Source: Owenia fusiformis (taxonomy: Eukaryota; Annelida; Polychaeta; Sabellida; Oweniidae). Taken from it: a stretch of DNA of 64,000 nucleotides. This document shows positions 8,601 through 55,849 of this stretch, one piece after another. How positions within the stretch are numbered: the first letter of the stretch is position 1; the number at the start of each line of letters is the position of its first letter. Location of the stretch: positions 37,381,759-37,445,758 of the forward strand of contig CAIIXF020000009.1 of the NCBI GenBank assembly GCA_903813345.2, in the 5' to 3' direction. Made by a program: the position numbers and the translations under genes. Below the pieces are notes generated by a model that was given only the letters and a program-made list of their open reading frames with translations, did no database searches and had not been told where the DNA came from.

Positions 8601-11600
8601 AAACAAACCCATCCCATAAATTAAGAGAACTAGTTAACTTGTGTACCTGGATGGATCATGTCAATGTGCCTATCTGAGACGAGACTAACTGAAGTGACAC
8701 CCAAACTATAGTCTCAGCCTTGCATTGACAAGCCAGTATATGGTCAAATATGTTGGTTCTGAAAACCTTGTTTCAATTTTATGAAAAATCTGAGATAGTT
8801 TGGAGATGAACTTTGCTATGCATTTTGTAAAAACACTTTCAAATATGAGAAGGGAAGGGGGCAAATTATCTAACACCAATGCTGAGGTTTAGCAGGTTCC
8901 ATTCAAAAAATTTTTAATGCCAGATATCTTTATAAACCAAGGGATGATGAACATTCACAAATTGTATTTATGTCAGAAGATTTATCACAGTGTATTTGGT
9001 CCTTCCTTGCTATGAATGCCTGGGTATAAAATTAGAACTTTTTAAAAGGAGAAAACATTCATGATTCAAATAAATTTTAATAACTTTTAACTTTATCTTC
9101 GAAAGTTGTTTTTTCAAAATATTTTTAAGAACAAAATAACCCGAAGGAAGATAAACGTTCAAAAATTACATTCATGCCAGAATTACTTAACCTCAAATTA
9201 TTTATGACACAATCACAACATAAATGCGCAATGTAGGAGCAAACTGACTCATACAACATTGGTTTGACGGAGAAAGAAATAGAAAATAGGCGCAATGGAA
9301 AAACTTAACTTCAATACTATAGTCTCTCAAGACAAACCGGTGAGTAATTTTTATTAAAAGTTTTTTAAGTAAATAATGGTATACATGACAAAGTGAATGG
9401 AAGAGCAGTGAACTGGTATTTTCAACTTTTACGACTTTTTTCATATGTTGATCAGTGTTCTCACCAGGAAATTTTAGGACTGTTTTTTTCACCCCCCCCC
9501 CTGCATGTGAGATTGGAGATTTCCTATCAATATACTTTTCAAAATACTACTGAAGAGTATCTGCCTAATTTAATCACAATGCACATTTCTAAAAGGTATC
9601 TGACTTTCTATTCCTTATTTCTATCTAGTTTTTTTATGTATTTTCTCAAGAGATTTACCAAAAATGTGACAAGGATGTAAAATTAGACTCCAGAATTGTT
9701 TTCTAAAACATTTTAGACTTTGACAGAGCTCTCAGACTATGGCACAAGAGAGTCTGAACACATTAGACAAAAAGGGGAAGCTGCAGAGTCTAAAAACCTA
9801 GTGAGAACCCTGATGATCAGTGCGGAATCTCATCAGTTAGAAATTAAATGCCTATTTTATTGTTAACCCATCAGCAATTAGAATTGTTTAAGTTAAATAA
9901 TTTGATTGACATGTAAAGTTATCAACCCTTAATATATTTTGAGCCCATTTTTTAAATATGAAAAATTGCTTTTTGGACCCTTCTCAAAAATATGGCTAAT
10001 GCAGATGAAGAACTTTTCAAAAACAAATAACCAATCAAGACCCATTAAGAAATTCCAAATCCACCATGATCTATTCCCTAGAACCCCCTTTAACAACATT
10101 GTTGCTCTGTAACTATTGCCAATATCATCAGTAAGAGTAACAGTTCTACTTTTATTATTCAGATGTCTGATGTGAAGACCAACAATGACGACAAAGTAAA
10201 GAAGATGTACATTGTGATTGCAATTGAAACTGCAATGATAGTTGGTTTGATGGCTGGATGTGTTTGCATATACCTTAGTACCCGGAATATTTGTCCCCTA
10301 TCAAAGGTACGATAGCTACTATATACCTTTTAAAATTTTAAATCCATAAATTTAACACCAGAAAATGTTTTTCTAACAACATACAAGGTCCAATTCATCT
10401 ACAATTCAATCTAACCTGTTATTAGATAAATAAATGGTACATGCAAATAAATATACAAAGGTATATGTATAAATAAGACACTAATGTTCATGGTATCCTT
10501 TAAGAAACATTTACTCCTGTCTGCAGGGATACAGAGTGAATGTGCATAATAAAGATGGGGTGACTGTTAGAGAGGACATTGATGTGGACAGAGAACATGG
10601 AGTTGTGATTCACCATGTATCCAACCAGGCCATCCTTACACATCGTAAATTGGTAAGAGCTGGCAGTTAGCATTTACTTATATTGTTGTTTTCATTATAA
10701 CATATTGCAGCATTTTGTTTCTTTCTCAACATCAAAACATACATGAATATAGCTGTAGTCGTTTCAGTGATGAGCTAAAAATTGGCAAGACTAGAACCAC
10801 CTTTTAAAAATTATGAATAATACAAATTTATTTCAGGGTGTCAGTGTAATGAGGTTTGCAGCAGAGAAGGAGTGCTACATTAGAGAGTTGATGGATGACC
10901 AAGAAAAGGAATTGGGTGATGAACAGGACAAAGGCAATGAAGTAAGTCACTCAATGATTAATAATATTAAGAAAGGGGGTTGGGAAAGACATTATGAATT
11001 CTCACTTTTCTTTCATTTTATTAAATATTATACAAATAGTGACTGCCATTGAGGGCAATAGTGTAAATTATTTCCCGGAGGGAATATCCTCTAAAATGTA
11101 CCATTCCCGAAGCCACTGAGGGAATAGTACATTATAGAGGATATTCCCAAGGGGAAATCATTTACACTATTGCTCGAAATTAGGCAGTCACTATTTGTTT
11201 TATTATATACCCTGTACTGACTCTTGTCCCGTTTCCCCTGCGAAGGCCAAAATGGCTTAGAAAGCCCCCTCCCCGGGTCCATTGTTAGCATTATAAGCTG
11301 TGACGTCATCATATGCTCAACAGAAATTTTTGCCTAAGAAATTTCTGAGACTCTCACTTGACAAATTCAATCGCTTTTAACATGTGAAATAGATTATCAT
11401 AACACTTGAAATTACACAGACGTATTGAGCTTAGGGGACTTTATCCACGTTGCTTATACTGTATTGTTCATGCACGTCTGTCATGGTGAACGGAGTGTTT
11501 GTGCTCATCCTTCATTTTTCTGTTTTTCAGACGTTTCCAAGGGTAATAGAAGTTACAATCGTGATGTCAGCGGGCAATAGTTCAAATGTATATTCCCGCT

Positions 11601-14600
11601 GACGTCACATTTGAGGGAATATAACTTTTGAAGGGAAATAGTAAATCTATTTTGGAACATTTGACTAGGTATTGACCAATCACCCGGCCCCTTAGGTATT
11701 CTTTAAAAATTGATATCTCTTGTTTTGTGTATTTGTATCTAGGAGGTGATTGATGTAAATGTTGATGAAGTAAGAGAATATAACTATGTAAAATCAGATA
11801 GACCGGTTGACATGACTGCTCTGGGGGATAATATTGGAGAGTTCTGCAAGGGGACGGAGATATCGTGGGTTCGGAAAAAGAAAGATGAACCAGACAGTGC
11901 TCCTAAAGGTAAAATCAATAACAATACATTTAAATGTTTGTATCATCAACATAATATTTGTTTTCATTAAAAAAACTTTATTTCGCATATAATAAAACAA
12001 ATGGTGATAAAGAAGCATATTCTGTAAGGTGGCATAAAAGTCTCTCTGAAATACCTTCTGTTTGTTGAATGAATAGTTTATACATGCCACGGTTTAATCC
12101 AGATCACACCACAATGGAAGCACTGGTAGTTGAATATCTTAAACTTTGGTTCTAGAGAAAACACAATCTATGGAGGAAATCTGCACATTTTTGTCAATTT
12201 TTAGTCTCACTAATTGTATTGTTGCAGCTTCACAAAAAAAGTTTCCACTAAAACTACTCAAGATAGTGCTCCAAACACTTCTCTACACCATGTGAGACAT
12301 TGTATTAGAATGTTTAAAATTATTAGATCATTTTTTGTATTTTTAGTGTTTCTTTGAAGTGACATACCCTTTGAAAAATCAAAGAGAGTCGGCGTGGCAT
12401 AATGGGACCAGATATGCTATAATGACTACTTATACTGCTCCAAGTAGTGTTCTCAAATCATTTCCAAACCAAATATAACAACATTAATTGATATCATTGT
12501 ATACTATTTATTGAAATACAGAAGAAAGGAGAGATGATATGATAAAAGTTTACAAAATTTTCAATGGACATGTCAGTATCAAATCAAGTTCCTTCTTCAT
12601 TGAGAATAAATCCACCACCAGGGGTCGTCATAAACTATATAAACAATGTCTTGGACTTGACATTGGGAAAAACTCCTTCAGCCAAAGGATTATTTATGAC
12701 TGGAACTCATTAACATCATTTATCATACAATCTCAATCATTAGAGACAACACGCATTGGAAACGGGAACAATTTAATCATGATATGACATGAAGATGAGG
12801 ACAACTACAGGATCCAAAAGTTATCTCATGAAATTTGAAGGTGATGTCTACAGTGGTTCTGTCGAGTATGGATGGACGAACAAACAGATGTGTCTAGGCT
12901 CACAATATGGCCCTATGGGGACATAAAAAGACTAGGATCTTGAGCCTTAAATTAAACTTTGTTCAATTTCATATGTTTGGATATATTTATTTTTCAGATC
13001 ATCCTCAAGATCGAGTAAAACGTCAGAAAAAGGGCAAAATCCAAAGGAATTCCACAGCCTCAATAAAGACCAAATCCCCAAGAATGGCTACAACTAGCAC
13101 AAGGACAATCTCCAAAGTTGTCTGCGTATACAGAGTAGTAAGAATAACGAGGATATATGTCATAACACCACGTTACATATATGTATGTACGGTGATAGAA
13201 GCAGAACTGGTGGGAATACTATTTCTACACTGACCTCAAAAATTATCTTTCTAACAGATTCAGCCAATTATAATAATAAATGACTCATTGTCAATGTCAA
13301 AATCTGAGTAGAAAAGAAGAAATTTTTTTTTATTTATTTATTTATTTATTTATTTATTATCATATTCATTTAGTATTATATATATATATTTTATTATTTT
13401 ATTTTATCGACTCTTTAGATGTCATATCATGACATATTAGTCACTTAGGTAGAGCAGTTCTTCCCATTGTCGAGTTGAGGAACTGGTATCTTTATCCTGG
13501 CTAGAACCATAGACAATTCTAGCCAGCGCCAGCCTTTTATCGAGTTAGCAGCACTCTAGTAATCGCCAGTATAGGTCAGCAGTCATAGGTCAAAGACAAA
13601 TCACAAGAAGTGCTGTGACCTGGGTTTGAACCCAAGACCTCTACTTTTCAGCTTGAAGCCAGACTTCCTGCTTTTCAGACCAATGCCTTAACCACTAGGC
13701 CAACCCGGCGACCTACATTAACAGTGTTGGCACTTGATACCCATAAAAGGGCATATCAGTGCTAAAATCAAAAGTTGTACAATATAAAAATATATTACAA
13801 TTTATATGAATTGAATGAAGCAAGAAATACAATTATAGATATCATGCCAGCTCATGTTATAAAATACGACAATATACAAAAATGCCTGCACATAAACAAT
13901 TCAAAAGTGAAAAATACAAACATAATACAATTGTGGAAGAATAACAGTACATGCTCATGGCTCAGTAACAACTCAGTAACAATTTATTAATGTTTTTTTG
14001 TAATTGTATTTAAAGGAGTAAAATGATGGTAGAGATTGAAGGGATGTTGGTAAATTGTTCCATATTATTGTTCGAGTATTGAATTGATTTTTTTGTTAAG
14101 TTTGATTTAAATTTGCATGGGATAATGTGATGGATTTGTCTCGTGGAACGAATGTGTCTGAAATTAATATTCTGTTTAAATAAATGAGAAGGAACGTGTG
14201 CTGGTTCTTTAACTATATTATACATGAATTTTGCTTTTTCTAATTTATGAATATCAAAGATAGTTAATATATGCAATTGCTTGAATAGTGGTAAACTTGG
14301 GTGAAGTAAATCTAAATTTAAAGATAATTTGACAAATATTTTTTGAATTGCATAAATCTTGTCTAATAAAAATTTGTTGGCATTTCCCCATATGATGTTA
14401 CAATATGAAATGTGAGAATATATAAGTGAGTAATATATATCTAGCAAAGCTGTAAAATTTAATTTGTAGCGAATTTTGTAAAGTATACCTAGTGTTTTGG
14501 ATATTTTCGAAATAATATAAGATATATGTTCGTTCCAATTTAATTTATTGTCAATTATTACTCCAAGAAAGTTTGTTTTTTCAACTCGTTCAATAGTATT

Positions 14601-17600
14601 TCTATCAATAATTAACTGATATTTGGGATCATTGAGTTTAGTTTTTGACTTAGTAAAGATCATATAATTAGTTTTATCTATGTTGAGTGAAAGTTTATTG
14701 CTCTTGAACCAATTAGAAATATTAATCATTTCATTATTTGCAATTTTGAATAAGTTTTCTAGGTTATCATCTTCGAGGCATATATTAGTATCATCAGCAA
14801 AAATAACTAATTTGAAAATATCTGATACCTTAAAAAGATCGTTTATATATAGTGTAAATAGTACTGGTCCCAAGACAGAGCCTTGAGGGACAATGCATAT
14901 TACAGTTTAACAATATTCATTAATTTACTATACTATGTATAGTGTCTTAAAAATTAAAAATTCGATAAATAATGCCATATGTTTTCAATAGCCTATACAT
15001 GTGACATCACATTCGTTGAAAACCTGTATTTTTTTTTTTAAATACACCTTTCATATCGATGACTTATGCATGGATGGAATACCTTGTGGTATTTTTAGTC
15101 ACATGGTACATGACTGACCAATCACAAACTGATTATCACTACAGGGAAATAATAATATACTTTATCTTCATGTTCTGTATACTGCTTGATTACAGCAATA
15201 ATAAATAAAAAAAATGTAGCTAAAAATGCATCAATGAAAAGTGTTACCTCACACCCATTTGCCTTTTGTTCAGAACATACAATATTTTATGTGCCTAGGT
15301 TTCGATCCTCCAAATATTGTGAAGGATCCACATGCGGGTTGTCTATTCTGCAATTACTCTAACAATCTGAGTGAGAATAAGTGATTTTCAGATATGTAAC
15401 TTCAGAGAAATTATATGATAGGAAGTTTCCAGTCAACAGATTTCTTACATATGGAATCTTTTCTCAAAAGAACTTCGTTTGATGGGATAAAGATTTCCTG
15501 TCTAATTTTGATGAAAATATTACTTTAAAAGGTTCAAAAGTAAGATACATGTATAAAACAAACTGATCCAATAAAGTACAAGTACAGGGTGACCGGAAAA
15601 AAAGGAGACTGTACTTTAATCTTGAGGAAAGTCAGAGCAAGATCTTGCTAGAGAAGCATAAGCCTTGCCCGTAGCCAGGTTTTACCAAGGGGGAGCTTTT
15701 GCAAAGGGGGAGCTTTTACTCTTTTGGCTAAAACTGCATGCAAAAAGTGCTCAGAATGGTGAAGGAGCCAAAAACTGCATGATTTAGGGTGGAGCTTCCC
15801 ACCCTCTAGCTCTCCCTGGCCATGGGACTGTTACTCAATTCACCTATTGCAACCCAAGCAATAATACAGTTTATTTGCATTTAACACAAATACAACAAAA
15901 TGAGTCTTCTCTATTTTTTATAGCATATCCCTTCTGATTCTTTGTGAATGATAAAACAAACAAAAAAACTGGCTAAGTACATGACATAGGTATGGTGAAG
16001 CACAGCCATATTTTGAAAGTATGTACCTTTTTACTTAACAAGAGATAATTGTGTCAATATAATGCTAGTAAATATATTCCTAGATCTTCAGTACTAATTA
16101 GTGTATTTCTTTATAAAGTTAATTACAATATATATCATTGACTAAAATCAATAAGGTCATAAAATAAATTATGAGCTGGTAAACAGGATTTGGCTGTCAA
16201 TATATTTAGACTTTTACATGCAGTTCAGGTTTAAGTGGTGTATATTTCTCACATTGAAAACTCTTCAAACACAATGTTGTTAATCTCAATTACAATTTAT
16301 TTATTACACCATCATCCAATCATTGGTTTTTAGGCACGACAATGTACAATAGTGTACAATAATGTTTTTACAATTATATTTATATTATATTCTCAATTCC
16401 TTCCAAGGCTCAAATAAATAATTGCATAATTAAATTAAAACATCAACATCACAAAACAATTTTTAAAGAATTAATATTTTTACAAAAACCAGAAGCAAAA
16501 ATTGTTTTCTAATACTATCAATCACTTTGACATTTAAAATGCCATTATTTTAAGAGGCAAAAATCATCAATAATGCTGGTTATAAATGCTAGTTATTACA
16601 TATAGAGTATAGCTCAAACAATTTTTGATTAAATCTTTTAAACGTGGACATGTTTTGAGAAAGTGTTTATTTATAGTAGTATTAAAAGTGCCTTTAAAAA
16701 CATGTCTCATAAATCTCAATAACAATTTAAGTCAAGTATTATTTTAAGAAAATACATGCTTGATTCGAGTGTCACTCAAGTAAAGAACAGAAAACATCCT
16801 TCTTGAGCAAAAAATTGATCAAAATATTTGCTTTATAAAATAATTCCCTTAACAGCAACAATAACAAAATCCTTATTGATTACAGGTACATTATTTTCAA
16901 AGTTATGGCCTTATATAAGGGTCAGTTAACAAGCAAAGGCCAGAAGAAACAACATCCTCATGATAGAAGACAGAAAAACATTTATTCCAGAAGATGGAAA
17001 AAGATAACACATATATTGTTACCGATGAAAAACTGGTGAGTGAAACACTGTTAAATATTAATTCCACTTGTTTGTTTTAGTGACATCTATCTCTAATGTC
17101 ATAAAAGACAATTTCATAATTTTCACTCAATTCATATGGCAGTGTTTTTTTTATTTTATTTTAGGGATTTAATATGGCTTCAAACACTAAGAGGACATAC
17201 ATTGGGGTGATAGTGACACTAGTGGCTATTGTACTGGGACTCACAGCAGGTTGTGTATACCTGGGACTTCAACATCAGATATATCAACATCATATTTCAA
17301 AGGTAACATTGACAGTCAAATTGTTCTTTCTCTAATGCTCTGCATGTATTGCATATACAATGTATTCAGTTTTGTCATCAAAGGATGGCACCCTTTGCAA
17401 TACCAATGATGCATATGAATGTTGTATTGTATAATGGACTTCAAAAAATCTTGCAGTGGATCATCTTTTGAACCATGGTAATACACCAACAATAATGTTT
17501 GACAGAGGAAAAGTATTCCTCAATACAGATATGGTGCAGAGACATCTGTGCATTAACTTAGATATTTCAACATGTATTACATATCTTGTCTTCAAACCTT

Positions 17601-20600
17601 CAGAGTTGATTGATGATTAAATATCATTTATCATCGGCAAAAAATCAAAGAGATTGGTCTATAAAAAGCACCCGTGCAAAAAAGTGTCTATTACTTGATC
17701 ACCCCTTGTATAGATTAATGGTACTGCTATCAGTATTTTTCTTTTGTTTTTTTTCTGACATGTGGTACTTATTTTAAAAGTGTTTCCTCACAGGGCATAC
17801 AAAGCTATAAAGTGAATGTTCACAATCCTGATGGGACAACAGTTCGAGAAGTCATTGACGAAGACAGAGAGAATGGTTTTGAAATTCACCATGTGTCCAA
17901 CCAGGCTATTCTTACTCATCACAAATTGGTGAGTGCTAAACCAGGCTATTTTTACTCATCACAAATTGGTGAGTGTTAAACCAGGCTATTTTTACTCATC
18001 ATAAATGGTGAGTGCTAAACCAGGCTATTCTTACTCATCAAATATTGGTGAGTGCTAAACCAGGCTATTTTTACTCATCATAAATTGGTGAGAGCTAAAC
18101 CAGGCTATTCTTACTCATCACAAATTGGTGAGTGCTAAACCAGGCTATTCTTACTCATCATAAATTGGTGAGTGCTAAACCAGGCTATTCTTACTCATCA
18201 CAAATTGGCGAGTGCTAAACCAGGCTATTCTTACTCATCACAAATTAGTGAGTGCTAAACCAGGCTATTCTTACTCATCACAAATTGGTGAGTGCTAAAC
18301 CAGGCTATTTTTACTCATCACAAATTGGTGAGTGCTAAACCAGGCTATTCTAACACATCACAAATTGGTGAGTGCTAAACCAGGCTATTCTTACTCATCA
18401 CAAATTAGTGAGTGCTAAACCAGGCTATTTTTACTCATTACAAATTGGTGAGAGCTAAACCAGGCTATTTTTACTCATCACAAATTAGTGAGTGCTAAAC
18501 CAGGCTATTTTTACTCATTACAAATTGGTGAAAGCTAAACCAGGCTATTTTTACTCATCACAAATTGGTGAGTGCTAAACCAGGCTATTTTCACTCATCA
18601 CAAATTGGTGAGTGCTAAACCAGGCTATTCTAACTCATCACAAATTGGTGAGTGTTAACAAAGAGCATTTATGATAAAGAGTACCATAAAGGTTAATACA
18701 TCAATCCAAATAATATGATTTAATCCCCAGGGCAAAATCTGTTGAGTTAGCTAAAGTAACATCAACTTCCCAGAGTGGTACTGAATAAAATATGTTTTCT
18801 CAAATCATTTCATATTTTGAAAATTTCATGCTAGAACTAACTAGCCAATATTGGTAATGTCAAACAAGGTTCAACAAAATGTCACAACCTACAGATGCCA
18901 AAGACTGACCACTGGAGCCAAATGCAAATTACAAATGGTGGCTACATGTCATTACTTCTTCAGCACTAGTTCTGATGAAGAGCAGTTTTATTTGTAACAA
19001 ATTGTTGATAGATAGTGATGGATAATATGAGCTAATAAAATGAGATTAATTGTATCAGTTGTATCTATTACTAACTGAAAATTCTTACAAATGTACTTTC
19101 AGGGTATCAATGTGATGAGACTAACAGTGGAGAAGATGTGCTTCATTAGAGAGTTGATTGATGAAAAAAATAAGAAAAGGAGAGACAGAGAAGACAAAGA
19201 CAATGAAGTAATTTACAAAATATTTTTATTGGTTTAGTTTACTACTCAATTTAAATGATATTGTTGATGCAAATGTATACTCTTTCACTACCCCCCATAT
19301 ATGGCTCCTTGGGGTCAGGTTAAAATGTGGAATAATTGTGAAAAGAAACATGTGAATATCACACCCGGTGATCGTGAATATGGGACGGAGGGGGGGAGCA
19401 GGCAATTTCTGCTAGGAAATTCAACAAATCTGGAAGATTTATTTTTTCAAGAAAAAGTTTACTATTGAATTGCTAAATGGATAGGCACACGGTATGGTAG
19501 AATATGTTAGGTTTTCTGGGATTTTTTCTGAAACGATACGCATCTAAGGTATGAGATCTATTAAAAAAGGCGCAAGGCCATCAACAGGCACAAATCAACG
19601 TTTTTGCTATAAATCAAGCAACAATGGTCTGGACGACCTGTAATAAATACTTGTAAGTGAAGTTATCATAACTAAATTAATGTCATTGCTGAATTTATAA
19701 AATAAGTTTCCATATGTGAAATAAAAAATAATCGAAAATAATGAATTTGGGACGGAGGGGGGGAGGGGACGGAGGGGGGAGCAATATGTATATAAGACAT
19801 GATTAGAGATGTTTCGCGACTTTAAGTCCTCTTACTCCAAATGTCCCAATTTTTCAGTCTCCAGGGGTATATCATCCAGTTTCTTACTAAGTTAATGAGT
19901 TAATTTTTCAAATACAAGAATTGGTGTGAAGTTGTTTCACTTTATAGAATTATTACTCCCCCCCTCCGTCCCCTCCCCCCCTCCGTCCCATTTTAATTAT
20001 TTTCGATTATTTTTTATTTTACGTATGGAAACTTATTTTATAAATTCAGCAATGACATTAATTTAGTTATGATAACATCACTTACAAGTATTTATTACAG
20101 GTCGTGTAGTCCATTGTTGCCTGATTTATAGCAAAAACTTTGACTTTTGCACGTTGGTTGCGTTGCGCCTTTTTTAATAGATCTTATATCTTAAAAGAGT
20201 ATCGGTTGAAAAATAATCCTAGAATACCTAACATATTTTATCATACCGTGTGTTTATTCAATTTGCAATTCAATCGTAAACTCTGTCTTGAAAAAATAAT
20301 TTTACCAGATTTGTTGAATTTTCTAGCGGAAATTGCCTGCTCCCCCCCTCCGTCCCATTTTCACGATCACCGGGTGTGAATATACTACTAAAGTTTCAAA
20401 CAATAATATTTATTACTTTGGTTTAAAATGAAAACTTAAGGTTTTCGTGAAAAATTCCCCTTATTTTTAGAGGCGGCCATCTTGAAAAAAGGTTGTGTAA
20501 AACTAGTCACCAATATACATCTTTCAACCAAATATGAATAAAATCTGTCTACTAGTATTTGAGATATCTTCAAGACAGATGGACGGATGGACTGACAGAC

Positions 20601-23600
20601 AGAGGGCTTCACTATATCCCTACAGAACTTCCTTGGGATAATAAGCATCCATGTACATGTATATGAATATATGCTTCATTTTAGGGGGTCATTGATGTGA
20701 CTGTAGATGAAGTAAGAGAATATAACTATGTAAAATCAGATCGACCAGTGAACATGGCTGCCCTGGGTGATGCGATAGGAGAGTTCTGCAAGGGCACTGA
20801 GATATCTTGGGTTGAGAGAACCAATGAAGGTGACGAACAAGCACAAGAGATTCCTCCAGGTATTGCTCATGAATTTCTGTCAGAAAGATGAAGAGACAAA
20901 ATTTCATTCAGATGATGGCAAAAGAGAAACTGCCTTATCAGCATAATATTAATTTTTCTTACAAAAAGGAAATGAGGTACACTGTATTTGTTTTCCTTTT
21001 TGGTACAAATGTTTTCACAGATTTATCCATGCTAGTGGATAAGTGGGCGTGTGGGAGTATTGCACCTGACATTAATGTTGCACTGTAAGAAGTCCTACTT
21101 TTTGTCCAAAGTCTATGAGTAAATGTTGTTATTATATATTGTTGTTATATTTATTATCTGTTTCAAAATGTATGGAGAATCAATATTTTTCCAAAATTTT
21201 CTTTCCAATTATTTTTCAACTTTTTTTCAATATTTTCTTTCCAATTATTTTCTAAAATTTTTTTAAATTTTTTTTTAAATAACCAAAAATCAGGATACAG
21301 GATATATCTTACCAACTTATTTCCCTAAAACTCTAGTGGGCATAGGATAAAGCTGAATCTTTCGTTTCTACCTTCTACAGTTGTCAATAATCAACAAGAA
21401 GAATGATGCCTATCAATTGTTAAGAAGTTTAAGTACATATTGCACATTGCTTCTATGTAAGAATGTTCAGTCCTATGACTACTGAATACCTGTCAATGAA
21501 ACTTTTCTAATTGAGCACCTGTTCGGTGGAACACACGTTGCAGTTCCGAGGGTGTTCTACATAAAAAGGTTTTACTGCTTGCTAATATTTCCAGGTCTAG
21601 CTCATTCTCGAGAAAAGCGGCAGAGATCACCAAGCTATACAAAGACTTGCTGGATGGAAGATGAAGAGTACTGTGCAAGAAAAGGATGGCTTTTCAGAGC
21701 AGGGAAGTGTCTTGACTGGTCAAGTCATTGGGTTGAAAAATGTGAAACGGTTTATTCGTAACAATACCAAAATGATAGAGTGCATTAAAAACCAATAAGC
21801 TTTAATCATGAAGTGCTGTAAATACATTTTGAACCATATAGTAAAAGTGCTATTTAAATCTAATATAATGATAATACTTGTTATCAATTGACTCTAATGA
21901 GAGCAGGTATCAACTTCTTTATTAAACGACTGATGTATGTGATGATACAGTATTCATATACTGCATGATGGTTATGTTAAGGCATTGGATATGGAGTATA
22001 TCCTGAGGGAAATATAGATATTCTACCAAGAAGACTAAGCAATGCATGATCAAAAATATTCTGAAAAAACTTGCCTTATATTGTATTGCTAGCCATAGGA
22101 TGACACTGGCCGGAGAGAATGTAAAGCTGATGAAAAATGTTAAAACTATTTTTGTGTGTTTATATTAATTGTACATATTGTAAATAATTATCACTGGTTC
22201 TCTAAGAAGACCTTGAACTGAGCTACCCAAAATAAATATATTTTTTAAATCAAATCAAAAATGTGGAATTTGTGAAGGACTTTTGGATGAAAGGAGAAAT
22301 ATATACTCTATTATGTTACTTACCTTTTGGGGGTCTCAGAATTTTTCCATTTTCCTTGGACCATCCAACAGGATGGAGGCAGGGGCTGGAGATTGAACTC
22401 CAATATTCAGTCTGTTCAGCACAGTTATCCAATTGAACAAGTATCCGCCCACCATGTATATCTTTCACAGTCCCTACGTACATAACATCTGGGTGTTCTT
22501 TACTTGGGGCTTCTAGCTTCCTCCCTACTTTAAAGCTATGGTTTGACAGCACCTAGGTGTGAAACATCAATCTTGGTTAAATGGGATTTCATCACAAAAA
22601 CATGTATGTAGGTTAAATTGGGGTTATACAAAACATTAACATATCACATTGAACTTTTTAGTTCATATGTTTGAGGGATGAGAACACTTACTTCAATCTC
22701 TAAATGTACAGGCCCGTAGCCAGGTGGGGTTCACAGGGTTCGGGCGAACCCCCCTGGCCAAAAATTCTTTCAAAATCATGCAGTTTTTCACCATTTTGAG
22801 CAGTTCTCAAGTGATTTTAGCCATATTTGGGCCAAAATTGTCAAATGTGAACCCCCCTTACCTGGAAATCTTTGAAAACTGAACCCCCCCTTGGCAAATC
22901 CTGGCTACGGGCCTGATGTACCTATAGACTATTTCTGACTCATAGGATTCCAAATGAAATGAAGGACCCACGGTCCTGTGCTCACACAGTTTGGAACCTT
23001 CAGAGGAATGTATATCCTGACTTTCAAACAAAAATATTGACTTGGATTTGTAGTCTCGAACTTTAAGAAACTTAGATAGCACAGTTGTGTGACCTAGTTT
23101 GATGACCTTTGACCTTGAAAATTTTACTTATTCAGAGCTCAGTAAGGTCTTTGTGATTAAACTGACCAAAATTTACATCTAAAAATCAATTTGAAAAATC
23201 AACTTTTTTGACCTTTCGAAGGTCACTGAAGGTCAACTAAAGGTCAAATCCTAAAACTAATGTCAGATTTGAACTCCTGGCAACTTGTAGGTGATTTTCC
23301 TCAAAAAAATTGGTCAAATTGAAGCAAGTTGAAAAATAACTTATTTTTACTGTTTTTTGACGTCAAATATCTCAAAAACTGTAAAAATTTGATGCTGACA
23401 TATATTGAGCAATATGTAGGGATACTTATATCTAGTAATGATGTAATTCATTGCAAGAAATGATCAAGTATAAGGCAAACTTTGAGAAACTTGTCAATCA
23501 CAAAACCTGCCATTGACTTTATACATGAGAAAGTTTCCTGAAAATGACCAAGTCCGACTTTTTGTCAAATTTTACAGAGTAAACACCAAAAACTGTAATT

Positions 23601-26600
23601 CCAAGAGCTTTGAAATCTTCAGAGGACATAAGTTGCATATACAGCAACTACTAAAAGTTATTTGAAAGTTCTACTTCAACAAAGTGTCTAGTATTTACAG
23701 AAAATTTGACTTTTTGACAATGGCGTTGATAGGTCAAATAGGCATTATGGATATGCATAAAATGAATGTGGATATGACTCAATCCGAATAGCAGTTTGGA
23801 CGGATGGACGGACGGACCAACGGACGGACGCCTGGTCGATCCCATAGGCTCACTGTGTGAGCCAAAAAGTATGAAGAGAAACTTGATTTCTTATTTATGC
23901 TCTTCTCTATTCTCAAACACTGGTTGGAAAATAAACAACTGGTAATAACTCTAGTAATTTGTGGCAAGAAAATTAACAATGCAAGACTCAATGTTTATAG
24001 ATGAGACTTGGAAGTATTACCTGTGTGTTGATACCGTTTTGAAAGAGGGATTCTGGTGCTGCTTCCATCTTTGTTTTCTTCAGGTACGATTGCCATGGAA
24101 ACTCTCCAGAATACCCTGTAAATGCTACAATACATTATTGCCATGGAGACTCAACAGAATACCCTGTAAATGCTACAATACATTATTGCCATGGAGACTT
24201 ACCAGAATACCCTCTAAATGCTACAATACATTATTGCCATGGAGACTTACCAGAATACCCTGTAAATGCTACAATACATTATTGCCATGGAAACTCTCCA
24301 GAATACCCTATAAATGCTACAATACATTATTGCCATGGAAACTCTCCAGAATACCCTGTAAATGCTACAATACATTATTGCAATGGAGACTCACCAGAAT
24401 ACCCTGTAAATGCTACAATACATTATTGCCATGGAGACTCACCAGAATACCCTGTAAATGCTACAATACATTATTGCCATGGAGACTCATCAGAATACCC
24501 TGTAAATGCTACAATACATTATTGCCATGGAAACTCTCCAGAATACCCTGTAAATGCTACAATACATTATTGCCATGGAGACTCACCAGAATACCCTATA
24601 AATGCTACAATACATTATTGCCATGGAAACTCTCCAGAATACCCTGTAAATGCTACAATACATTATTGCCATGGAAGCTCTCCAGAATACCCTGTAAATG
24701 CTAAAATACACTATTGCCATGGAGACTCGCCAGAATACCCTGTAAATGCTGCAATACATTATTGCCATGGAAACTCTCCAGAATACCCTGTAAATGCTAC
24801 AATAAGTTGTTGCCATGGAAACTCTCCAGAATACCCTGTAAATGTTACAATAAATTATTGCCATGGAAACTCTCCAGAATACCCTGTAAATGTTACAATA
24901 AATTATTGCCATGGGAACTCTCCAGAATACCCTGTAAATGTTACAATAAATCATTACCATCTCTCCCAAATTCACTGTAAATATAAATATAACATTATAT
25001 CATTGCCAGATTTCCCTGTAAATAAAACAGTAAATTATTCCTATGGAAACTCTTAATAAATACCCTGTAAAAATTACAATGAATTACTAAAACGGAAACA
25101 AATATTAATGTTATTTTTGATGTTAACAAAGAATGATTACATAATTTATAAGAAACTAATATTTTTATTTTTAAATGAAATTTATGATATATTTTACCTC
25201 ATATAAAAAACATAGTCAAATCCATGTGAAAACACTCAGATACTAACAGAATGAGAGCCCTTTAACAAACTGTAGGCTAGTAGTTGTCACACAGGAGAAA
25301 TAAAAGTAAATCACAAAATCAAAAGCATTACAAGCAAATTCAGATCTATAATGATGACATAGTCATTATCAAAAATGATGCCACTAAAAACTATGTCATG
25401 TTTGCTATCATAAACAATATGCCCTTTACCACTCCTAATAGCATAAGTTCTCATTTTATATTAAAATATACCAATAAGAATACATAATAGGTCTACATAA
25501 TATCAAATTGCAAGCTTGTTCCTCTAATTAAAGGCACAAGAAGAGATAAAGTTGCGTTGAGAGTAAGTAAAAATTGTCACAATTTTACAATGTTTGCTCT
25601 CGCCATTCTATGTCAAGTCTATTTTCTAAAAAGTCCAACATTTCTGATTCTGATATTTAAGGTTATTCGAAACACAAAAGTAGGTTTTCATTACAGGGTG
25701 GCCCAGAGGTAAGATCAAAGACATTGCTTCTTCAATACTACTGATGCAATCATCATGAAACCTGGTACACAATGTATCCAAACATTACTCTGTTAATACC
25801 CTGAGATTAATGATTCAACCATTTAATTGGTCAATATCATGTATGCTATGGTAACCCATATGATGTTACGTCACCTGGAGCAAAACATTTGCTCTGGTGA
25901 TTGTCACATCAATGTGATGTCACATTTCTAAAATCATATTTATATTTTCAACAATTCTTTGCTTTTTACAAGTCAAGTGATTTTCTAAGGTTTATAAATG
26001 ATCTCATATTTCAGTTGAAGGCAACCAAGAAGTAAATCATGTTAAGTAAAAGAGCAATACAACAATTCTCAAGTCTTATGAATGCAAGAAAGGAATGGGT
26101 ACAATATGTGGGGAAGACTGGAGGATAAAAAGGCAGGTTAATGCAACACCAAATCAGTCCTAGTGTAAAAGAAGTCACTCCTCAAACCTGAACTCAAATT
26201 CTACTCTTTTTTGTTCTTGATATCTTAAAAATCATTTCATTATTTTGGTACTCCATCACTATGTGTGTACTATAATAGGGAGGTTAAGATACGTGAATTG
26301 AGAGCAGGAAAGTAATCTCCGGGGGTTAAAATATTACACGCTCACATACAGGTTCCTTTAAAAATGTGTAACTTAACCTCCTTAATATGTAAATAAAATG
26401 TAAATAAAATGTAAATAAATGTACAATTGTTTCAAATGATTTTTTACTTTTTAATATAAAGCAAATGTCATCTAAAACATATATTGCAACAGATTTATAA
26501 TATGCCTTATTTAAAGTGCCAATTCGGTAATGTCCATTTATTTTTCTTTGTACAAATAGATTCAATGGGTATTGGTTGGTAGAAATAGTATACCAACAGA

Positions 26601-37363: not shown

Positions 37364-40300
37364 ATGGAGCATAAATTAATCATATTAGCATGTCGAAATA
37401 TATCAGGTAACTATTTCTTACGTTTGACGTGATTTTGTGGATAGAAAAGTGGGGAAAGAGGTGTTTATAACTGACATCAACAAGGCTACATTCACAGAAT
37501 CAGTCCCTAACATTTTATATACAGTGGGGGACATAAAGAATTCATCATCATCATCATGTTTAGGAGGGTAAGGTTAGTCCTGTGTTGTCCTCCCTTCTGG
37601 TTTTATTATTTACATGGATTCTTATGGGCAGTTTTCAATTTCTTTGGTATTTTATTTCCCAAAGACGGTATTGTTTTAATTAAATGTGACGGTTGCACTA
37701 AAATTATGTTGAACATGGGCAAAAAACTAGTGTAGTGTGAACTGGTCATCCTGGGTCTCTGGTGATCTTCTACATGTCTGGGTAGTAGTAGGTATCGACC
37801 TTTACCTTGAAATCATCTAATGTTAAGGCTGTAACTACATTCTCTGGGAGGTTGTTCCAGTCGTCTATAGTACGCTGACTGAAGAACCCTCGTCTCAGGG
37901 CAAGGTTACATCTGGGTTTGTAGAATTTCTGGCAGTGGCCTCTTGTGTTGGTGTGACTTGGGGTAAAGAAGTGGGATGGCTCTATCTTGTCTATCTCATT
38001 CATGATTTTATATACTTGAATTAAGTCTCCTCTTTTCCTCCTGTATGTCATCGGAAATAGGTGAAGCTGCTTTAGTCGTTCTTCGTAGGGTAGGTCGGTC
38101 ATGCCGGTGATGAGTTTGGTGGCTCTCCTTTGTATTTTCTCAATCTTATTAATGTCCAATTGATATCTGGGATTCCAGGCTACGGTGCAGTATTCCAGGT
38201 GGGGGCGGACTAGGGTTGTATATAGGGGGAGGAAAATATCTGCATCTTTGTTTGAGAATGTTCTTTTGATTGCACCCAAAATCTTATTTGCTTTGTTTAC
38301 ACAGTTGGAGACATGGTCATGGAACTTTAAATCCTGGTCAATGGTCACGCCAAGGTCACGTTCTTTGGTGACATCTTCCAGTGGTTGGTTATCTAGTGTG
38401 TATTTGTGGTTGTTGTTATTGTTCCCCAGATGAAGAACTTTACATTTGCTGGAGTTGAATTTGAGCAGCCATTTTTCGGACCACTTGACAAGTTCGTTAA
38501 TGTCTTCTTGTAGTTTAGTGATGTCGTCTTGTCTGGGAATGGCATTGTACAGCTTCGTGTCATCAGCGAAGATTTTCAAAGTGCTTTTAACTTTCTCGGG
38601 AAGATCGTTTATGTAGATTATGAAGGCCAGTGGTCCGAGGCTCGAGCCTTGAGGGATACCACTGGTGACTTCAGTCCAGCTTGAGAGGCTACCATTGACT
38701 TTGACTCTCTGTCTTCGTTTAGTCAGGAATGCAGTCAGCCACTTTAGAAGGTTCCCCTTGAAGCCATAGCTGTTTAGTTTTTCAAGTAGTCTGCAGTGCG
38801 GTACGCTGTCAAACGCCCGGGAAAAGTCAAAATATATTACGTCTATTGGGTTGCCAGTATCGAGTAGACTTGTCCAATCCTCGAGTACTGTAAGCAACTG
38901 GGTGCTACATGAACGCCCGGGTACAAACCCGTGTTGGGCATCTGTTAATAAGCCCAGTGTCACCATGTGGTTTACCATTGCGTCCCTAATTATGGATTCC
39001 ATGGTCTTACACAGGATACAAGTTAGCGATATTGGACGGTAGTTGCTGGGAGCTGTTCTTTTACCCTTTTTGTGGATGGGTGTTATCTCGCCATCTTTCC
39101 AGATTGATGGTAATGTTCCTGAATCTAGGGATTTGGTAAAAAGCAGACTGAGAGGGAGGGCTAGTTCATGTGAACATTCCAGTAGAAATCTTGCGGGAAT
39201 ATTGTCGGGGCCGGGGGATTTGCAGGCTTTGAGCTTTTTGAGTTTATGTAGGACTAGTTCCTCTGTAAATTCTATAGTTTCCAAGGTTTGGGTTGATCTG
39301 GGAGTTATTCTGGGGATGTTTGTGTCGTCTTCTACAGTAAACATGGTGGCGAACTATTGACTTAGGATGTTTGCCATTTCCGTATTCTCATCTGTTGTAC
39401 TACCATCTGGCTTGTCTAGTGAGCTGATCTTGGGGCGCGTCCTGAGTTTAGAGTTGACGTATGCCCAGAAGGCCTTAGGATTAGTCTTTATTTGTTTGGC
39501 TATATCTTTCTCAAATTCTTTACATAGCTGTCTGCATAGTCTTCTGGTTTCATTGCTTGTTTTCTTTGCTTTCAGGTAGTCTTGATACGTCTTGGTTTCT
39601 CTGTAGTGTTTCCAGGCCTTGGCTTTTCTTCGCAGTTGCCTTAATTACAAAAGAATTACAAAAGCTATTGAAATTACATGCTGTCGCACATGTAATAAAT
39701 TCTTACCTCAGTGTATTCAGTGCTCTATTTTCTCCGTCCTAGTAAGTCCAGATATAGTGGAATTCGTGTCCATAATGACAAATAAGAAGAACTTCAAAAT
39801 TTGAAGTGGAATTCACATGTTAATGCCGACTCTTCAAATGTTGAGGTGATTTTGGAGCCCGATGGCGCCGCAATGTGGATTGGCTCCCAGAATGCAACAT
39901 GACACCTGTCAGCTTTCAAAATGCCGTTCTGCCATTTTGAAGTCTGTCACATTAGGTTACCTGATGTTGCATTCTGGGAGTCAATCCTCCTTGTATCACA
40001 AACATGGTGATTCATGAAAACATTCATTTGATTTGGTAGAGATTTATCCATCATTTTAAGGTATGAAGCTTTGGATTCATTTATTGTGCTACTAAAGTGA
40101 ATGGGAATTATTTTCTACTGCGGGAGAGTTTGAGACGCGAAACTTCAGAATTAAGCTCATTGTGACAACTTTTGAGGGTTGAGATTTATTTTTGTCCCCC
40201 ACTTTAGATTGTCTGATATCTTTGCACGTAAATGCTATAGAATTAAATGAAAGCATACTATTAAATTTGTGTAAATATCATGGTTCAAGCATAGTTTATT

Positions 40301-52466: not shown

Positions 52467-53732
52467 ATGGCGTCTCAACAAATGTTGTACAAACCAGAGG
52501 GAGCATTATCACCAAGTGACGATGCACTTTTGGACGAACCAATGGATACTGATAAAGGTCCGTCTACTAGCTCAAATGCTTGTGAAACTGGTTCTAAGAC
52601 CAAGGATAGGTCTAAATCTGGTGATATAGGATCAAAGAAATCCCGAAAATTGTCTTCAAAACAAGACTTTTCCGACAATAGCCTCCAGAGTTTGACTCAG
52701 GCTATAACAACCTCAATATCCAGTGGACTGGGTGCAATTCAAAGCACCTTGTCGGGTGTAATGACTTCGTCCATTAAAGACCTGCAAAAGTGCATACAGC
52801 ATTCTCAATATGCTGAGGATGTAGATGACTTTGGATATAATGATGAGGAGGATGAAATTGACCAGGATCAATTCAATGATGATACCGATGGTTGTGAACC
52901 ACCACCTAGAAAGAAACCTAAGGTTTCTGATCAGGAGGAGCAAACGGATGAACCAGCTAGGAAAGCCTCATCACTGATGCAAAGCCTCCAAGCAAAGGTG
53001 AAAACCCATGAAGAAATGGGCCCACCATTGAGTGATGGAGCGGCTGCTCTATTAAATGATCTCATACAGTCAAATATGAACGATGATGATGAAAAATTAA
53101 AATTTGACAAATATAAAACGCCTTCTAATACCCCCAATGTCAGCACGACCAAGGTCAATGAGCAAATTTGGTCACGTGTATCTGCTGATGTCCGGTCGAG
53201 TGACATCCGCTTACAGAAAACACAGGCTCCACTTATTAAAGCTACGATCGCTTCAATGCGTGCATTAGAAATGATCGACGAGTTAAAGCAGAATTTGGCC
53301 TCCGTCTCTGATGATTATGATGATACTTTGGGCAAAATTGCTGAACTCATGTACGATAGCATTGAACTTTCTTGCAGTGCTAACTACAAGTTTAACCTTC
53401 GACGCAGGGAATTATTCAAACCTGAAATCAGTCAAAACTTTAAGCATCTCTGCGCGAAGTCAGTCCCTATTACTACCTACCTGTTTGGCGACGACATCAC
53501 GAAACAAGTTCGTGATATTGCCGAGATGAACAAAACTCAACTTAAGGGAGTTTTCCCCTCTAATGATAACAGGAGTGGATTTAGAGGACGCGGCAAGGGG
53601 CGCGGACGTGGTCGAGGTCGAGCTTCTTTTTTAGGCCAGCGCCAGCGGGGCAACCAATCCAAATGGAAAGAAAGCCAGGGAAAGGGGAAGAGATCAAGAT
53701 CCAACCCAGACAAGAAAACCCAATCCCAATAG
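52467..53732 (+). CDS. DIRS gag-like protein
   Basis: 421 residues. The first 80 are Ser/Lys-rich, then SLQSLTQAITTSISSGLGAI starts a helical part. An acidic stretch (residues about 115-140, DDFGYNDEEDEIDQDQ) and PPPRKKPK, a likely nuclear signal, follow. The core (about 215-360) ends FKHLCAKSVPITTYLFGDD. The C terminus (about 370-400) is an Arg/Gly box (RGRGKGRGRGRGR), as in DIRS gag proteins lacking zinc knuckles, and probably binds RNA. It overlaps the RT ORF by 70 bp in another frame, so frameshifting or re-initiation is needed for RT. Confidence 0.78.
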   Translation: MASQQMLYKPEGALSPSDDALLDEPMDTDKGPSTSSNACETGSKTKDRSKSGDIGSKKSRKLSSKQDFSDNSLQSLTQAITTSISSGLGAIQSTLSGVMTSSIKDLQKCIQHSQYAEDVDDFGYNDEEDEIDQDQFNDDTDGCEPPPRKKPKVSDQEEQTDEPARKASSLMQSLQAKVKTHEEMGPPLSDGAAALLNDLIQSNMNDDDEKLKFDKYKTPSNTPNVSTTKVNEQIWSRVSADVRSSDIRLQKTQAPLIKATIASMRALEMIDELKQNLASVSDDYDDTLGKIAELMYDSIELSCSANYKFNLRRRELFKPEISQNFKHLCAKSVPITTYLFGDDITKQVRDIAEMNKTQLKGVFPSNDNRSGFRGRGKGRGRGRGRASFLGQRQRGNQSKWKESQGKGKRSRSNPDKKTQSQ

Positions 53733-55849
53733 CCTCCATACAATCGTCCCCAGCCATGGAAGGTGATATTACAGAGGTAAGAAATTCTCTGAGAAATATG
53801 GTTAAAATGTTCAAAGGCGGTCGATTGAAACAATTCTATCAGGCATGGTGTTCAATAACGTCAGATGAATCTATTCTTAAAACTATTAGAGGCTATGATA
53901 TTGAATTCATAGATGATGTACCTTACAGTGAGCATCAACGCGCATTAAAATTTTCAGAATCAGAATGTTTGGCGGTTGATGAGGAAATTGAAAAATTCCT
54001 AATGAAAGGCATAATCGAAATAGTTGATAGATCGAATATCGGTTATTTGTCATCAATTTTTCTGACCCCTAAGAAAGATGGGTCAAAAAGAACCATATTA
54101 AATCTTAAAAATCTGAATGAGCATGTTGAGTATCACCATTTTAAAATGGAAAATCTTCAAAATGCCATCAGTCTTGTAAGTAGGAATTGTTTCATGTCCA
54201 CCGTCGACGTAAAGGACGCCTATTACAGCATTCCAATTTCAACAGATTCACAAAGGTTTCTTCAATTTGAATGGAAGGGTAAAATATACCAATATACATG
54301 TCTTCCACAGGGCCTTTCATCAGCCCCTCGAATTTTCACGAAAATCTTGAAACCTGTATATTCCATTCTACGCAACGAAGGCCATCTGTCGGTGGCTTAC
54401 ATTGACGATTCTTGTCTCTTTGCAGAAACATATGACGAATGCAAACGAAACATTCTTGCCACCATGCAAAAGCTTCAGAGTTTGGGCTTCATACTTCACC
54501 CAGAGAAGTGCGACCTGGAACCTAAACAGGTAGTTACATTCTTAGGTTTTCAATTAGATTCGATCAACATGAAAATTAGCCTTACGACTGAAAAAGCTAT
54601 TTCTATAGTTTCCTTGTGTAGAAAGCTTATAAGTCAACGCAAAGTTGAGTGTTCAATAAGAGAATTGGCTCAATTAATTGGAAAACTGGTCGCATCTTTT
54701 CCCGGGGTGACATATGGCCCACTGCATTATCGTATCCTAGAGCATGAGAAAATAACAGCGTTGGCACGGAATCGTGGTAATTTTGATGCTAACATTGTTC
54801 TTTCTCGTGAAGCTATTAGTGAAATAAAATGGTGGATGGATAATGTGAAATCTGCATTCAAATGTTTATCTATTGCAGAACCTCGCCACCTGATAAGGAC
54901 GGATGCCAGCATGATGGGCTGGGGTGCCTTTGACGTAACCCATAATGTTAAAACTGGTGGACGATGGACAAACGAAGAATCTGAAAATCACATCAATTAT
55001 TTAGAACTTTTGTCTATCTATTTAGGTTTGAGGTCTTTATGCCGAGCATCTGATGGTCTCCACGTCAGGGTCGAAACTGATAATACCACTGCTCTCACAT
55101 ACATCAATAAAATGGGGGGTACGAAATCAGCTTCTTGCAATCAGCTTGCTAAAGAAATCTGGCAATGGTGTATTTTGCAAAATATTTGGCTATCATGTAG
55201 TCATATAGCTGGTGTTGATAACATTGAGGCTGATTCCGAATCTCGCCTATTTCATGACGATACAGAATGGATGATTCAAAAATATGTGTTTCATGACATT
55301 GTCCAGTTAGATGGTTGGCTGAAACCCAATATAGATTTATTTGCTTCCAGGTTGAACAATCAATTGAAGAAATACGTTTCTTGGAAGCCAGACCCGAATG
55401 CTCAATTTATTGACGCCTTTTCAAAAAATTGGCACAATTTGCTAATATATGCATTTCCTCCTTTCAGTTTGCTGATGAGAGTTATGCAAAAGATAGCGAA
55501 CGACCAAGCAGAAGCGATCGTTATCGTTCCCCTTTGGTCGACACAACCTTGGTGGGCAAAAATGTTACGTTTGCTGGTGAAAAACCCTGTCGTTCTACCT
55601 CGCAAACCGAACCTACTATATCTTCCATACAAGGACGATCAGCATCCCCTTCGACGGAAATTGACTCTAGTGGCTTGCAACTTATCAGGGAACATCTCAA
55701 AAACCAAGGCGTATCGGGACACGCTGCTGAGATCGTCATCAATTCGTGGAGACCACTTTCTCAAAAACAGTACGCGGTTTACCTCAGAAAGTGGATTCAG
55801 TTCAACAGTGCTCGGGAAAGTAATCCCCTTCGTCCAACTTTACAAATAG
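53663..55849 (+). CDS. DIRS reverse transcriptase, RNase H and methylase-like domain
   Basis: 728 codons. RT: KGIIEIVDRSNIGYLSSIFL, KKDGSKRTILNLKNLN, STVDVKDAYYSIPI (first Asp about residue 181), LPQGLSSAPRIFTKIL, catalytic YIDD (about 246-249), and LGFQLDS. RNase H with all four acidic residues: RTDASMMGWG (about 412), INYLELLSIYLGL, VETDNTTALTYI, NIEADSESR. Then NIDLFASRLNNQLKKYVSW, IDAFSKNW and YAFPPFSLLMRVMQKI, the module after RNase H that is annotated in DIRS elements as a DNA N6-adenine methylase-like domain. The last 140 codons overlap the recombinase ORF in another frame. The first ATG used is a convention; the true start depends on how the ORF is reached from gag. Confidence 0.9.
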   Translation: MERKPGKGEEIKIQPRQENPIPIASIQSSPAMEGDITEVRNSLRNMVKMFKGGRLKQFYQAWCSITSDESILKTIRGYDIEFIDDVPYSEHQRALKFSESECLAVDEEIEKFLMKGIIEIVDRSNIGYLSSIFLTPKKDGSKRTILNLKNLNEHVEYHHFKMENLQNAISLVSRNCFMSTVDVKDAYYSIPISTDSQRFLQFEWKGKIYQYTCLPQGLSSAPRIFTKILKPVYSILRNEGHLSVAYIDDSCLFAETYDECKRNILATMQKLQSLGFILHPEKCDLEPKQVVTFLGFQLDSINMKISLTTEKAISIVSLCRKLISQRKVECSIRELAQLIGKLVASFPGVTYGPLHYRILEHEKITALARNRGNFDANIVLSREAISEIKWWMDNVKSAFKCLSIAEPRHLIRTDASMMGWGAFDVTHNVKTGGRWTNEESENHINYLELLSIYLGLRSLCRASDGLHVRVETDNTTALTYINKMGGTKSASCNQLAKEIWQWCILQNIWLSCSHIAGVDNIEADSESRLFHDDTEWMIQKYVFHDIVQLDGWLKPNIDLFASRLNNQLKKYVSWKPDPNAQFIDAFSKNWHNLLIYAFPPFSLLMRVMQKIANDQAEAIVIVPLWSTQPWWAKMLRLLVKNPVVLPRKPNLLYLPYKDDQHPLRRKLTLVACNLSGNISKTKAYRDTLLRSSSIRGDHFLKNSTRFTSESGFSSTVLGKVIPFVQLYK

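What the first reader, a model, noticed from the sequence alone, without database searches (positions are those of the whole stretch)
9295..21761. Tandem BRICHOS precursor genes with conserved chaperone exons but unrelated C-terminal peptide exons
Seen: two six-exon genes share exon phases, the two BRICHOS cysteines at identical residue numbers (118, 175), near-identical exon 5 (VDEVREYNYVKSDRPV, GEFCKGTEISWV) and an RxKR site at residues 201-204 and 204-207. The part after the cleavage site, all in exon 6, shows no similarity: one is basic with two cysteines, the other near-neutral, Trp-rich with four cysteines. Known: BRICHOS domains assist folding of the peptide in the same precursor, and polychaete BRICHOS precursors release antimicrobial hairpins. 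Inference: a modular locus in which the peptide exon is replaced or diversifies while the membrane-anchored chaperone is kept, perhaps an undescribed host-defence or signalling peptide family.
Basis: partly seen in the sequence, partly recalled or inferred. Interest (0 to 1): 0.9.

Follow-up and report, generated by a model that had tools for sequence, protein, structure and literature searches.

The report
Paired BRICHOS genes, unrelated terminal peptides
Two neighbouring genes of what looks like an annelid worm make nearly the same membrane-anchored helper protein but end in two unrelated peptides, a variation on a known kind of worm defence-peptide gene in which the helper also seems to have lost a residue that almost all its relatives keep.

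Summary
Two six-exon genes (9295-13233, 16994-21761) share intron phases 0,0,0,0,1, C118/C175 and RVKR/REKR sites; their last exons show no similarity. This is the published plan of annelid BRICHOS antimicrobial-peptide genes (alvinellacin). Membrane-anchored BRICHOS precursors with unlike peptides in one worm are published too, so the kind is known.

New here: (1) At least 18 BRICHOS loci lie in this genome. The window pair's peptides differ far more than those of several other old pairs. In cluster C7 the chaperone exons of copy a match its neighbours at silent sites while its introns and peptide exon do not, so chaperone and peptide exons have separate histories; the window pair itself shows no such silent-site contrast. 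(2) The near-universal BRICHOS Asp is His in both genes and a third relative, Asp in the other 13 genes read; a published survey of 1908 single domains lists D, N, E, S only.

Not settled: replacement versus fast divergence of exon 6, expression, activity. Gene 1's peptide is predicted as a long beta-hairpin; gene 2's matches nothing known.

The parts
9295..9339 (+). gene 1 exon 1 (N-terminal tail)
   Evidence: donor gtgagt
10163..10306 (+). gene 1 exon 2 (anchor helix; hydropathy maximum at residues 33-51)
10527..10652 (+). gene 1 exon 3 (linker; ends with H102-R-K-L at the usual BRICHOS Asp position)
10837..10941 (+). gene 1 exon 4 (BRICHOS Cys118)
11743..11908 (+). gene 1 exon 5 (BRICHOS Cys175; ends in phase 1)
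12998..13233 (+). gene 1 exon 6 (RVKR 201-204 and basic 69-aa peptide with two Cys, predicted beta-hairpin)
13275..13280 (+). AATAAA signal after gene 1
16994..17035 (+). gene 2 exon 1 (N-terminal tail)
17165..17302 (+). gene 2 exon 2 (anchor helix; hydropathy maximum at residues 27-45)
17794..17928 (+). gene 2 exon 3 (ends with H102-H-K-L at the Asp position)
17899..18658 (+). 40-bp minisatellite, 19 copies, each like the end of exon 3 plus its 5' splice site
19103..19207 (+). gene 2 exon 4 (BRICHOS Cys118)
20685..20859 (+). gene 2 exon 5 (BRICHOS Cys175; ends in phase 1)
21595..21761 (+). gene 2 exon 6 (REKR 204-207 and neutral Trp-rich 46-aa peptide with four Cys)
21784..21789 (+). ATTAAA signal after gene 2

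Best explanation
A tandem pair of BRICHOS peptide-precursor genes of the annelid BRICHOS-AMP kind. Each makes a type II membrane protein: short cytosolic tail, anchor helix, linker, BRICHOS domain in the ER lumen, then a basic site and a C-terminal peptide (anatomy shown; topology inferred from hydropathy). The BRICHOS domain keeps the peptide from aggregating while it folds and forms disulphides, and a furin-like protease releases it (inferred from family knowledge). Gene 1 would release a basic beta-hairpin, most likely antimicrobial; gene 2 a small disulphide-bonded neutral domain of unknown target. The phase-1 intron just before the cleavage site makes exon 6 a self-contained cassette, so chaperone and peptide exons evolve separately: chaperone exons under purifying selection and, in some clusters, apparently homogenised between neighbours; peptide exons free to change. 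In this branch the usual BRICHOS Asp has become His, which may alter its pH response (inference).
For: Exon number and phases equal those published for alvinellacin. Both chaperone parts align with C5d/G4 (scores 105 and 122, no shuffle of 500 as high), which scores 48.3 bits with Pfam BRICHOS; C7a 44.9 and C10a 35.6. Chaperone exons 2-5, gene 1 against gene 2: dN 0.27-0.30, dS 1.0-1.2 by three methods. Anchor helix 2.29/2.60 on the 19-residue scale, basic residues on its N side. Gene 1 peptide modelled as a 17+17-residue hairpin, pLDDT about 95 over most of it in the best model. C7: silent differences at codons for identical residues 16/180 (a-b) and 15/177 (a-c) in exons 2-5 against 21/41 and 21/39 in the peptide exon (Fisher 5e-9, 1e-9); between a and b or c only exons aligned in the 3.1-kb loci compared; the unlinked pair C5d-C8 shows no contrast (41/102 against 15/36, p 1.0). 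His at the Asp position in G1-G3, Asp in the other 13 genes read.
Against: No transcript was seen. Pfam scores of G1 and G2 are under the cut-off and G3 has no Pfam match. In gene 1's model the turn lies at residues 252-255, so C238 and C259 do not face each other as in arenicin (my inference from the strand positions; coordinates were not seen), and only two of five models were fairly confident. Its likeness to arenicin-1/-2 is weak (shuffle p about 0.03, uncorrected for 20 comparisons). Gene 2's peptide is not cationic. The window pair itself shows no silent-site contrast between exons 2-5 (38/103 overall, p 0.19), and C7b-C7c and C5a-C5b show none between chaperone and peptide, so the separate-history evidence comes from some pairs of other clusters.
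Confidence: 0.8

Rival explanations
1. Exon 6 of one gene was physically replaced: an unrelated terminal exon was captured behind the chaperone exons, with the phase-1 intron as joint.
For: No similarity in any of nine frame pairings or in DNA; class change (2 Cys, +10.8, hairpin against 4 Cys, neutral, mixed fold). Other pairs with similar or higher silent divergence in the peptide exon keep recognisable peptides: C5d-C8 36/75 identical, C7a-C7b 43/78, against 14% here.
Against: No donor copy of either exon 6 found elsewhere in the genome (one match each, itself; masked or missing stretches remain possible). Neutral drift at d 1.0-1.2 gives a score as low in 11-49% of runs. C10a-C10b shows a homologous terminal exon at 36% peptide identity while chaperone exons 3 and 5 differ at only 11/111 silent codons.
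Confidence: 0.35
2. One gene is decaying: gene 2 (or gene 1) has lost its peptide function and exon 6 drifts.
For: Peptides unalignable; neutral drift would suffice.
Against: Both frames intact over six exons with consensus splice sites; four Cys and a consistent predicted fold in gene 2 (five models 78-84); exon 5 dN/dS about 0.1 over its first 43 codons.
Confidence: 0.1
3. The released peptides are not defence peptides but signals, or the membrane-anchored chaperone itself is the product.
For: Gene 2's peptide is neutral and Trp-rich; acidic Cys-rich BRICHOS peptides exist in this genome (C5 cluster) and 11-Cys ones without pronounced cationic character in H. filiformis.
Against: The closest published architecture is antimicrobial; gene 1's peptide is cationic and predicted as a hairpin.
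Confidence: 0.3

Closest known systems
Alvinellacin / capitellacin precursor genes (Alvinella, Capitella)
   Same: Alvinellacin: six exons with only the last intron in phase 1; intron positions nearly conserved in capitellacin (PMC4002450 legend); BRICHOS, then peptide in the last exon; tandem duplication and recombination between copies (PMC5431198 passages)
   Different: Those have a signal peptide, not an anchor. In Alvinella pompejana the peptide is monomorphic and the chaperone diversifies; in the window pair the chaperone is kept and the peptide differs
HfBRI precursors of Heteromastus filiformis; BvBRI/UuBRI/UcBRI-21 of spoon worms
   Same: Transmembrane BRICHOS precursors (5 of 13 HfBRI, and the three spoon-worm ones) with basic site and C-terminal peptide; varied peptides in one species (PMC10745061 introduction and section 2.1; PMC9410094 passages)
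   Different: Described from transcriptomes; the parts I read give no locus structure. Their sequences stand in figures and supplements that I could not read, so they were not compared
Arenicin-1/-2
   Same: Basic two-Cys peptide, hairpin; a shared CVY..VR stretch
   Different: Arenicin is 21 aa with Cys3-Cys20; here 69 aa, 20 residues between the Cys, weak likeness (p about 0.03), Cys not opposite in the model
BRICHOS domains with Asp (Bri2, proSP-C and most others)
   Same: Two Cys, overall domain; the intron 4 residues after the position is shared with this genome's ITM2-like gene
   Different: His at the Asp position in G1, G2, G3; a survey of 1908 single domains reports 97% D, 2.7% N, the remaining 0.3% E and S (PMC9627735 section 10)

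Membership tests
BRICHOS domain (PF04089) | Profile score over the curated cut-off (25 bits) | tested here: not met
   G1 22.9 bits, E 1e-4; G2 15.7 bits, E 0.017; G3 no match. Related by alignment to in-genome members, three of which pass (48.3, 44.9, 35.6 bits). I therefore call them BRICHOS-related by descent, not members by the Pfam rule
BRICHOS domain (PF04089) | Two disulphide Cys in the domain | tested here: met
   C118, C175, aligned in G1-G4; the bond itself not testable
BRICHOS domain (PF04089) | Near-invariant Asp upstream of the first Cys (97% in the survey, so usual rather than strict) | tested here: not met
   His in G1, G2, G3; Asp in 13 other genes of the genome; the survey reports no His
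Annelid BRICHOS-AMP precursor genes | Six exons, introns phase 0 except the last in phase 1, peptide in last exon | tested here: met
   G1 and G2 against PMC4002450. G3 lacks the last intron
Annelid BRICHOS-AMP precursor genes | Hydrophobic signal or anchor, linker, BRICHOS, dibasic site, C-terminal peptide | tested here: met
Annelid BRICHOS-AMP precursor genes | Released peptide kills microbes | not testable with these tools
   no assay; G1 peptide cationic, G2 neutral
Arenicin-like beta-hairpin | Disulphide-closed two-strand hairpin | tested here: inconclusive
   Hairpin predicted, but C238/C259 not opposite in that register; single-sequence model, 2 of 5 models fairly confident; no PDB match by sequence and none by Foldseek at E <= 0.001
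Host is an annelid | Erythrocruorin linker C-terminal family (annelid-restricted as recalled) | tested here: met
   three matches within 15 kb of C6, over the cut-off, one of them with a stop inside

The most novel reading that the evidence does not exclude
A branch of BRICHOS chaperones in which the pH-sensing Asp is His, giving a reversed charge switch (neutral when folding in the ER, positive in acidic vesicles) that frees the client on acidification and makes the chaperone tolerant of many clients; this would let the terminal exon be exchanged or remodelled while, elsewhere in the family, chaperone exons are repeatedly copied between neighbours, exon by exon.
Probability: 0.2. Interest if true: 0.8.

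Novelty: new variant of a known kind. Interest (0 to 1): 0.6.

Why it matters
It shows at gene level how one chaperone can serve unlike peptides: the peptide sits in a cassette exon whose history can differ from that of the chaperone exons. That makes a testable system for chaperone-client specificity, for the reverse of the Alvinella pattern, and for the role of the conserved BRICHOS Asp, for which nature here offers a His version in three genes beside Asp relatives in the same genome. The genome also yields a list of BRICHOS peptides to test (predicted hairpin, Cys-rich basic, Cys-rich acidic, neutral Trp-rich).

Tried and rejected
Exon 6 as mis-read intron: less likely, because two exons, and no others on the plus strand of the window, meet acceptor, phase and basic-site criteria, at the expected places.

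Exon capture from elsewhere in the genome: each exon 6 finds only itself; not excluded, since a donor may be lost, masked or missed.

Using lack of similarity as proof of replacement: dropped after the neutral simulation.

Homogenisation within the window pair: tested over exons 2-5, not seen.

PDB and fold searches for the two peptides gave nothing of use. Gene 1 sequence: none. Gene 2 sequence: two weak hits, the better one (1ouv, E 1.8e-4 for the whole chain) driven by repeats with no stretch significant alone. Foldseek: none at E <= 0.001; VIA-align on the 7 chains Foldseek offered for gene 2's peptide: none at Z >= 2. Gene 1 precursor and profile A1 against PDB: no BRICHOS entry.

Terminal exons of the C1, C3 and C4:15.56 Mb genes: looked for, only doubtful candidates or none (the pattern did not find exon 5 of C1b); left out of all peptide counts. 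C5c (C5:8432.4 kb) was not fetched; C5a exon 3 is outside its locus; both absent from the Asp/His count.

Literature: ten searches. BRICHOS with gene conversion (two papers, one the Alvinella paper, which reports it between tandem copies), with tandem/annelid/genomic (two papers) and three of histidine/aspartate/polychaete/BRICHOS (10 of 44 papers listed) listed no title on unlike terminal exons in tandem genes or on His at the Asp position. That is no proof of absence: only open-licence papers are held and most were seen as listings.
Full report
Observation. Both gene models hold: six exons each, GT..AG introns, phases 0,0,0,0,1, 273 and 253 aa, C118/C175, RVKR 201-204 and REKR 204-207. Chaperone parts align (score 516), released peptides do not (score 22, p 0.11-0.14). 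In DNA, exons 3, 4 and 5 align at 76-86%, introns and exon 6 not at all.

What it is. The exon plan equals the one given for alvinellacin (PMC4002450, legend passage seen). Transmembrane BRICHOS precursors with varied peptides are published from Heteromastus and spoon worms (PMC10745061, introduction and section 2.1 read; PMC9410094, passages). The host genome holds the Eryth_link_C family, which I recall as annelid-restricted. Pfam BRICHOS matches of the pair are under the cut-off (22.9 and 15.7 bits) and the third relative, G3, has none; the link rests on alignment to in-genome relatives, of which C5d, C7a and C10a pass, on the two Cys and on the gene plan.

Genome survey. The BRICHOS family search lists 15 places, 3 of them over the cut-off; with G1, G2 and G3, which it misses, that makes 18 loci, a lower bound: C9 pair (window), G3 on C4 at 9.91 Mb, four on C5, one on C8, three on C7, two on C10, two on C1, one on C3, one on C4 at 15.56 Mb, and an ITM2-like gene on C4 at 0.08 Mb (the ITM2 name is by recalled resemblance). 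Exons were read, in part, for 17; C5c was not fetched. Peptides read: G1 basic two-Cys; G2 neutral four-Cys; G3 basic seven-Cys in the same exon as the BRICHOS end; C5 (three copies) and C8 acidic ten-Cys; C7 (three copies) eight-Cys; C10 six- and five-Cys. Those of C1, C3 and C4:15.56 Mb were not found with confidence.

Separate histories. I compared silent changes only at codons for identical residues. C7a-C7b: 16/180 in exons 2-5, 21/41 in the peptide exon (p 5e-9); C7a-C7c: 15/177 and 21/39 (p 1e-9); C7b-C7c: 13/182 and 4/62 (p 1). Between a and b or c only exons align within the 3.1-kb loci compared (94.7-96.1% for exons 3-5, 69-70% for the peptide exon), not the introns; between b and c a 763-base stretch over exon 5, intron 5 and exon 6 aligns at 90.6%. 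C5b-C5d: exon 3 3/34, exon 4 8/17, exon 5 4/33, peptide 17/42 (heterogeneity p 6e-4; chaperone against peptide p 0.009); C5a-C5d weaker (p 0.04); C5a-C5b none (p 1.0). The unlinked pair C5d-C8 is even: 41/102 against 15/36 (p 1.0). The simplest reading is exon-limited homogenisation of chaperone exons between neighbours, with the peptide exon escaping; assembly error or strong silent-site constraint is not formally excluded, but the unlinked control speaks against constraint. Recombination between tandem copies as such is published for Alvinella (PMC5431198, passages).

The window pair. Its silent differences do not differ significantly over exons 2-5 (9/17, 13/32, 3/17, 13/37; p 0.19), 38/103 in all, so it looks old and unconverted. 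Pairs with similar or higher silent divergence in the peptide exon keep 48-55% peptide identity (C5d-C8 36/75 at 15/36 silent, C7a-C7b 43/78 at 21/41), while here identity is 14%, background. That makes exon 6 of this pair an outlier against those. Replacement is not proven: neutral drift would also erase similarity in 11-49% of simulated runs at d 1.0-1.2, and C10a-C10b has 36% peptide identity and dN/dS 1.7 over 25 codons although chaperone exons 3 and 5 differ at 11/111 silent codons.

Asp to His. The residue four before intron 3 is Asp in 13 of the 16 BRICHOS genes read, the ITM2-like gene among them, and His in G1, G2 and G3; the distance to the first Cys is 16 in G1-G3 and in the ITM2-like gene. 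Pfam profile position 10 falls on this Asp in C5d, C7a and C10a, counting from the matched ranges; in G1 the match starts at position 12, so His102 lies at position 10 by extension. A survey (PMC9627735, section 10 read) gives 97% Asp, 2.7% Asn and the remaining 0.3% Glu and Ser for 1908 single domains; passages of the same paper tie the Asp to a pH-dependent assembly switch with pKa between 6 and 7. What His does there is inference. Precursor sequences of other annelid species could not be read, so I cannot say whether they share it.

Peptides. AlphaFold without an alignment gives gene 1 a hairpin at residues 235-251 and 256-272, pLDDT about 95 over most of it in the best model, but only two of five models are fairly confident and the Cys are not opposite. 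Gene 2 gives a compact mixed fold, five models 78-84, without a PDB match. Likeness of gene 1 to arenicin-1/-2 is suggestive only (p 0.034 and 0.027 among 20 comparisons).

Mechanism. Shown: anatomy, conservation, cassette exon, separate exon histories in some pairs of other clusters. Inferred: type II topology, chaperoning, furin-like release, defence role of gene 1's peptide. Compared with Alvinella (PMC5431198, abstract and passages), where the peptide stays identical and the chaperone varies, the window pair runs the other way.

Noticed in passing
window 17899-18658: From the end of exon 3 into intron 3 of gene 2 run 19 copies of a 40-bp unit like the end of exon 3 plus its 5' splice site, so many donor-like GTGAGT sites lie in tandem.
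   Followed up: partly
L018-L020, L034, L035 (C7 cluster): Chaperone exons 2-5 of copy a nearly identical to those of b and c at silent sites while its introns and peptide exon are not: exon-limited homogenisation.
   Followed up: partly
L032, L033 (C10 pair): Tandem BRICHOS genes whose short Cys-rich peptides (hairpin-like by eye, not modelled) differ in Cys pattern, dN/dS 1.7.
   Followed up: partly
L008 (G3, C4:9.911-9.919 Mb): Third relative with His at the Asp position; it lacks the last intron, so BRICHOS end and a basic seven-Cys peptide share one exon.
   Followed up: partly
L027 (C8): BRICHOS precursor with a long Asp/Ser-rich tail after the Cys-rich part.
   Followed up: no
window 14010-14903, 37773-39353, 53585-55846: Reverse-transcriptase frames of mobile elements; the first lies between the two genes.
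   Followed up: no
window 24043-25056: Long tandem repeat (unit about 48 bp by eye) with long open frames; Pfam hits there look like repeat artefacts.
   Followed up: no
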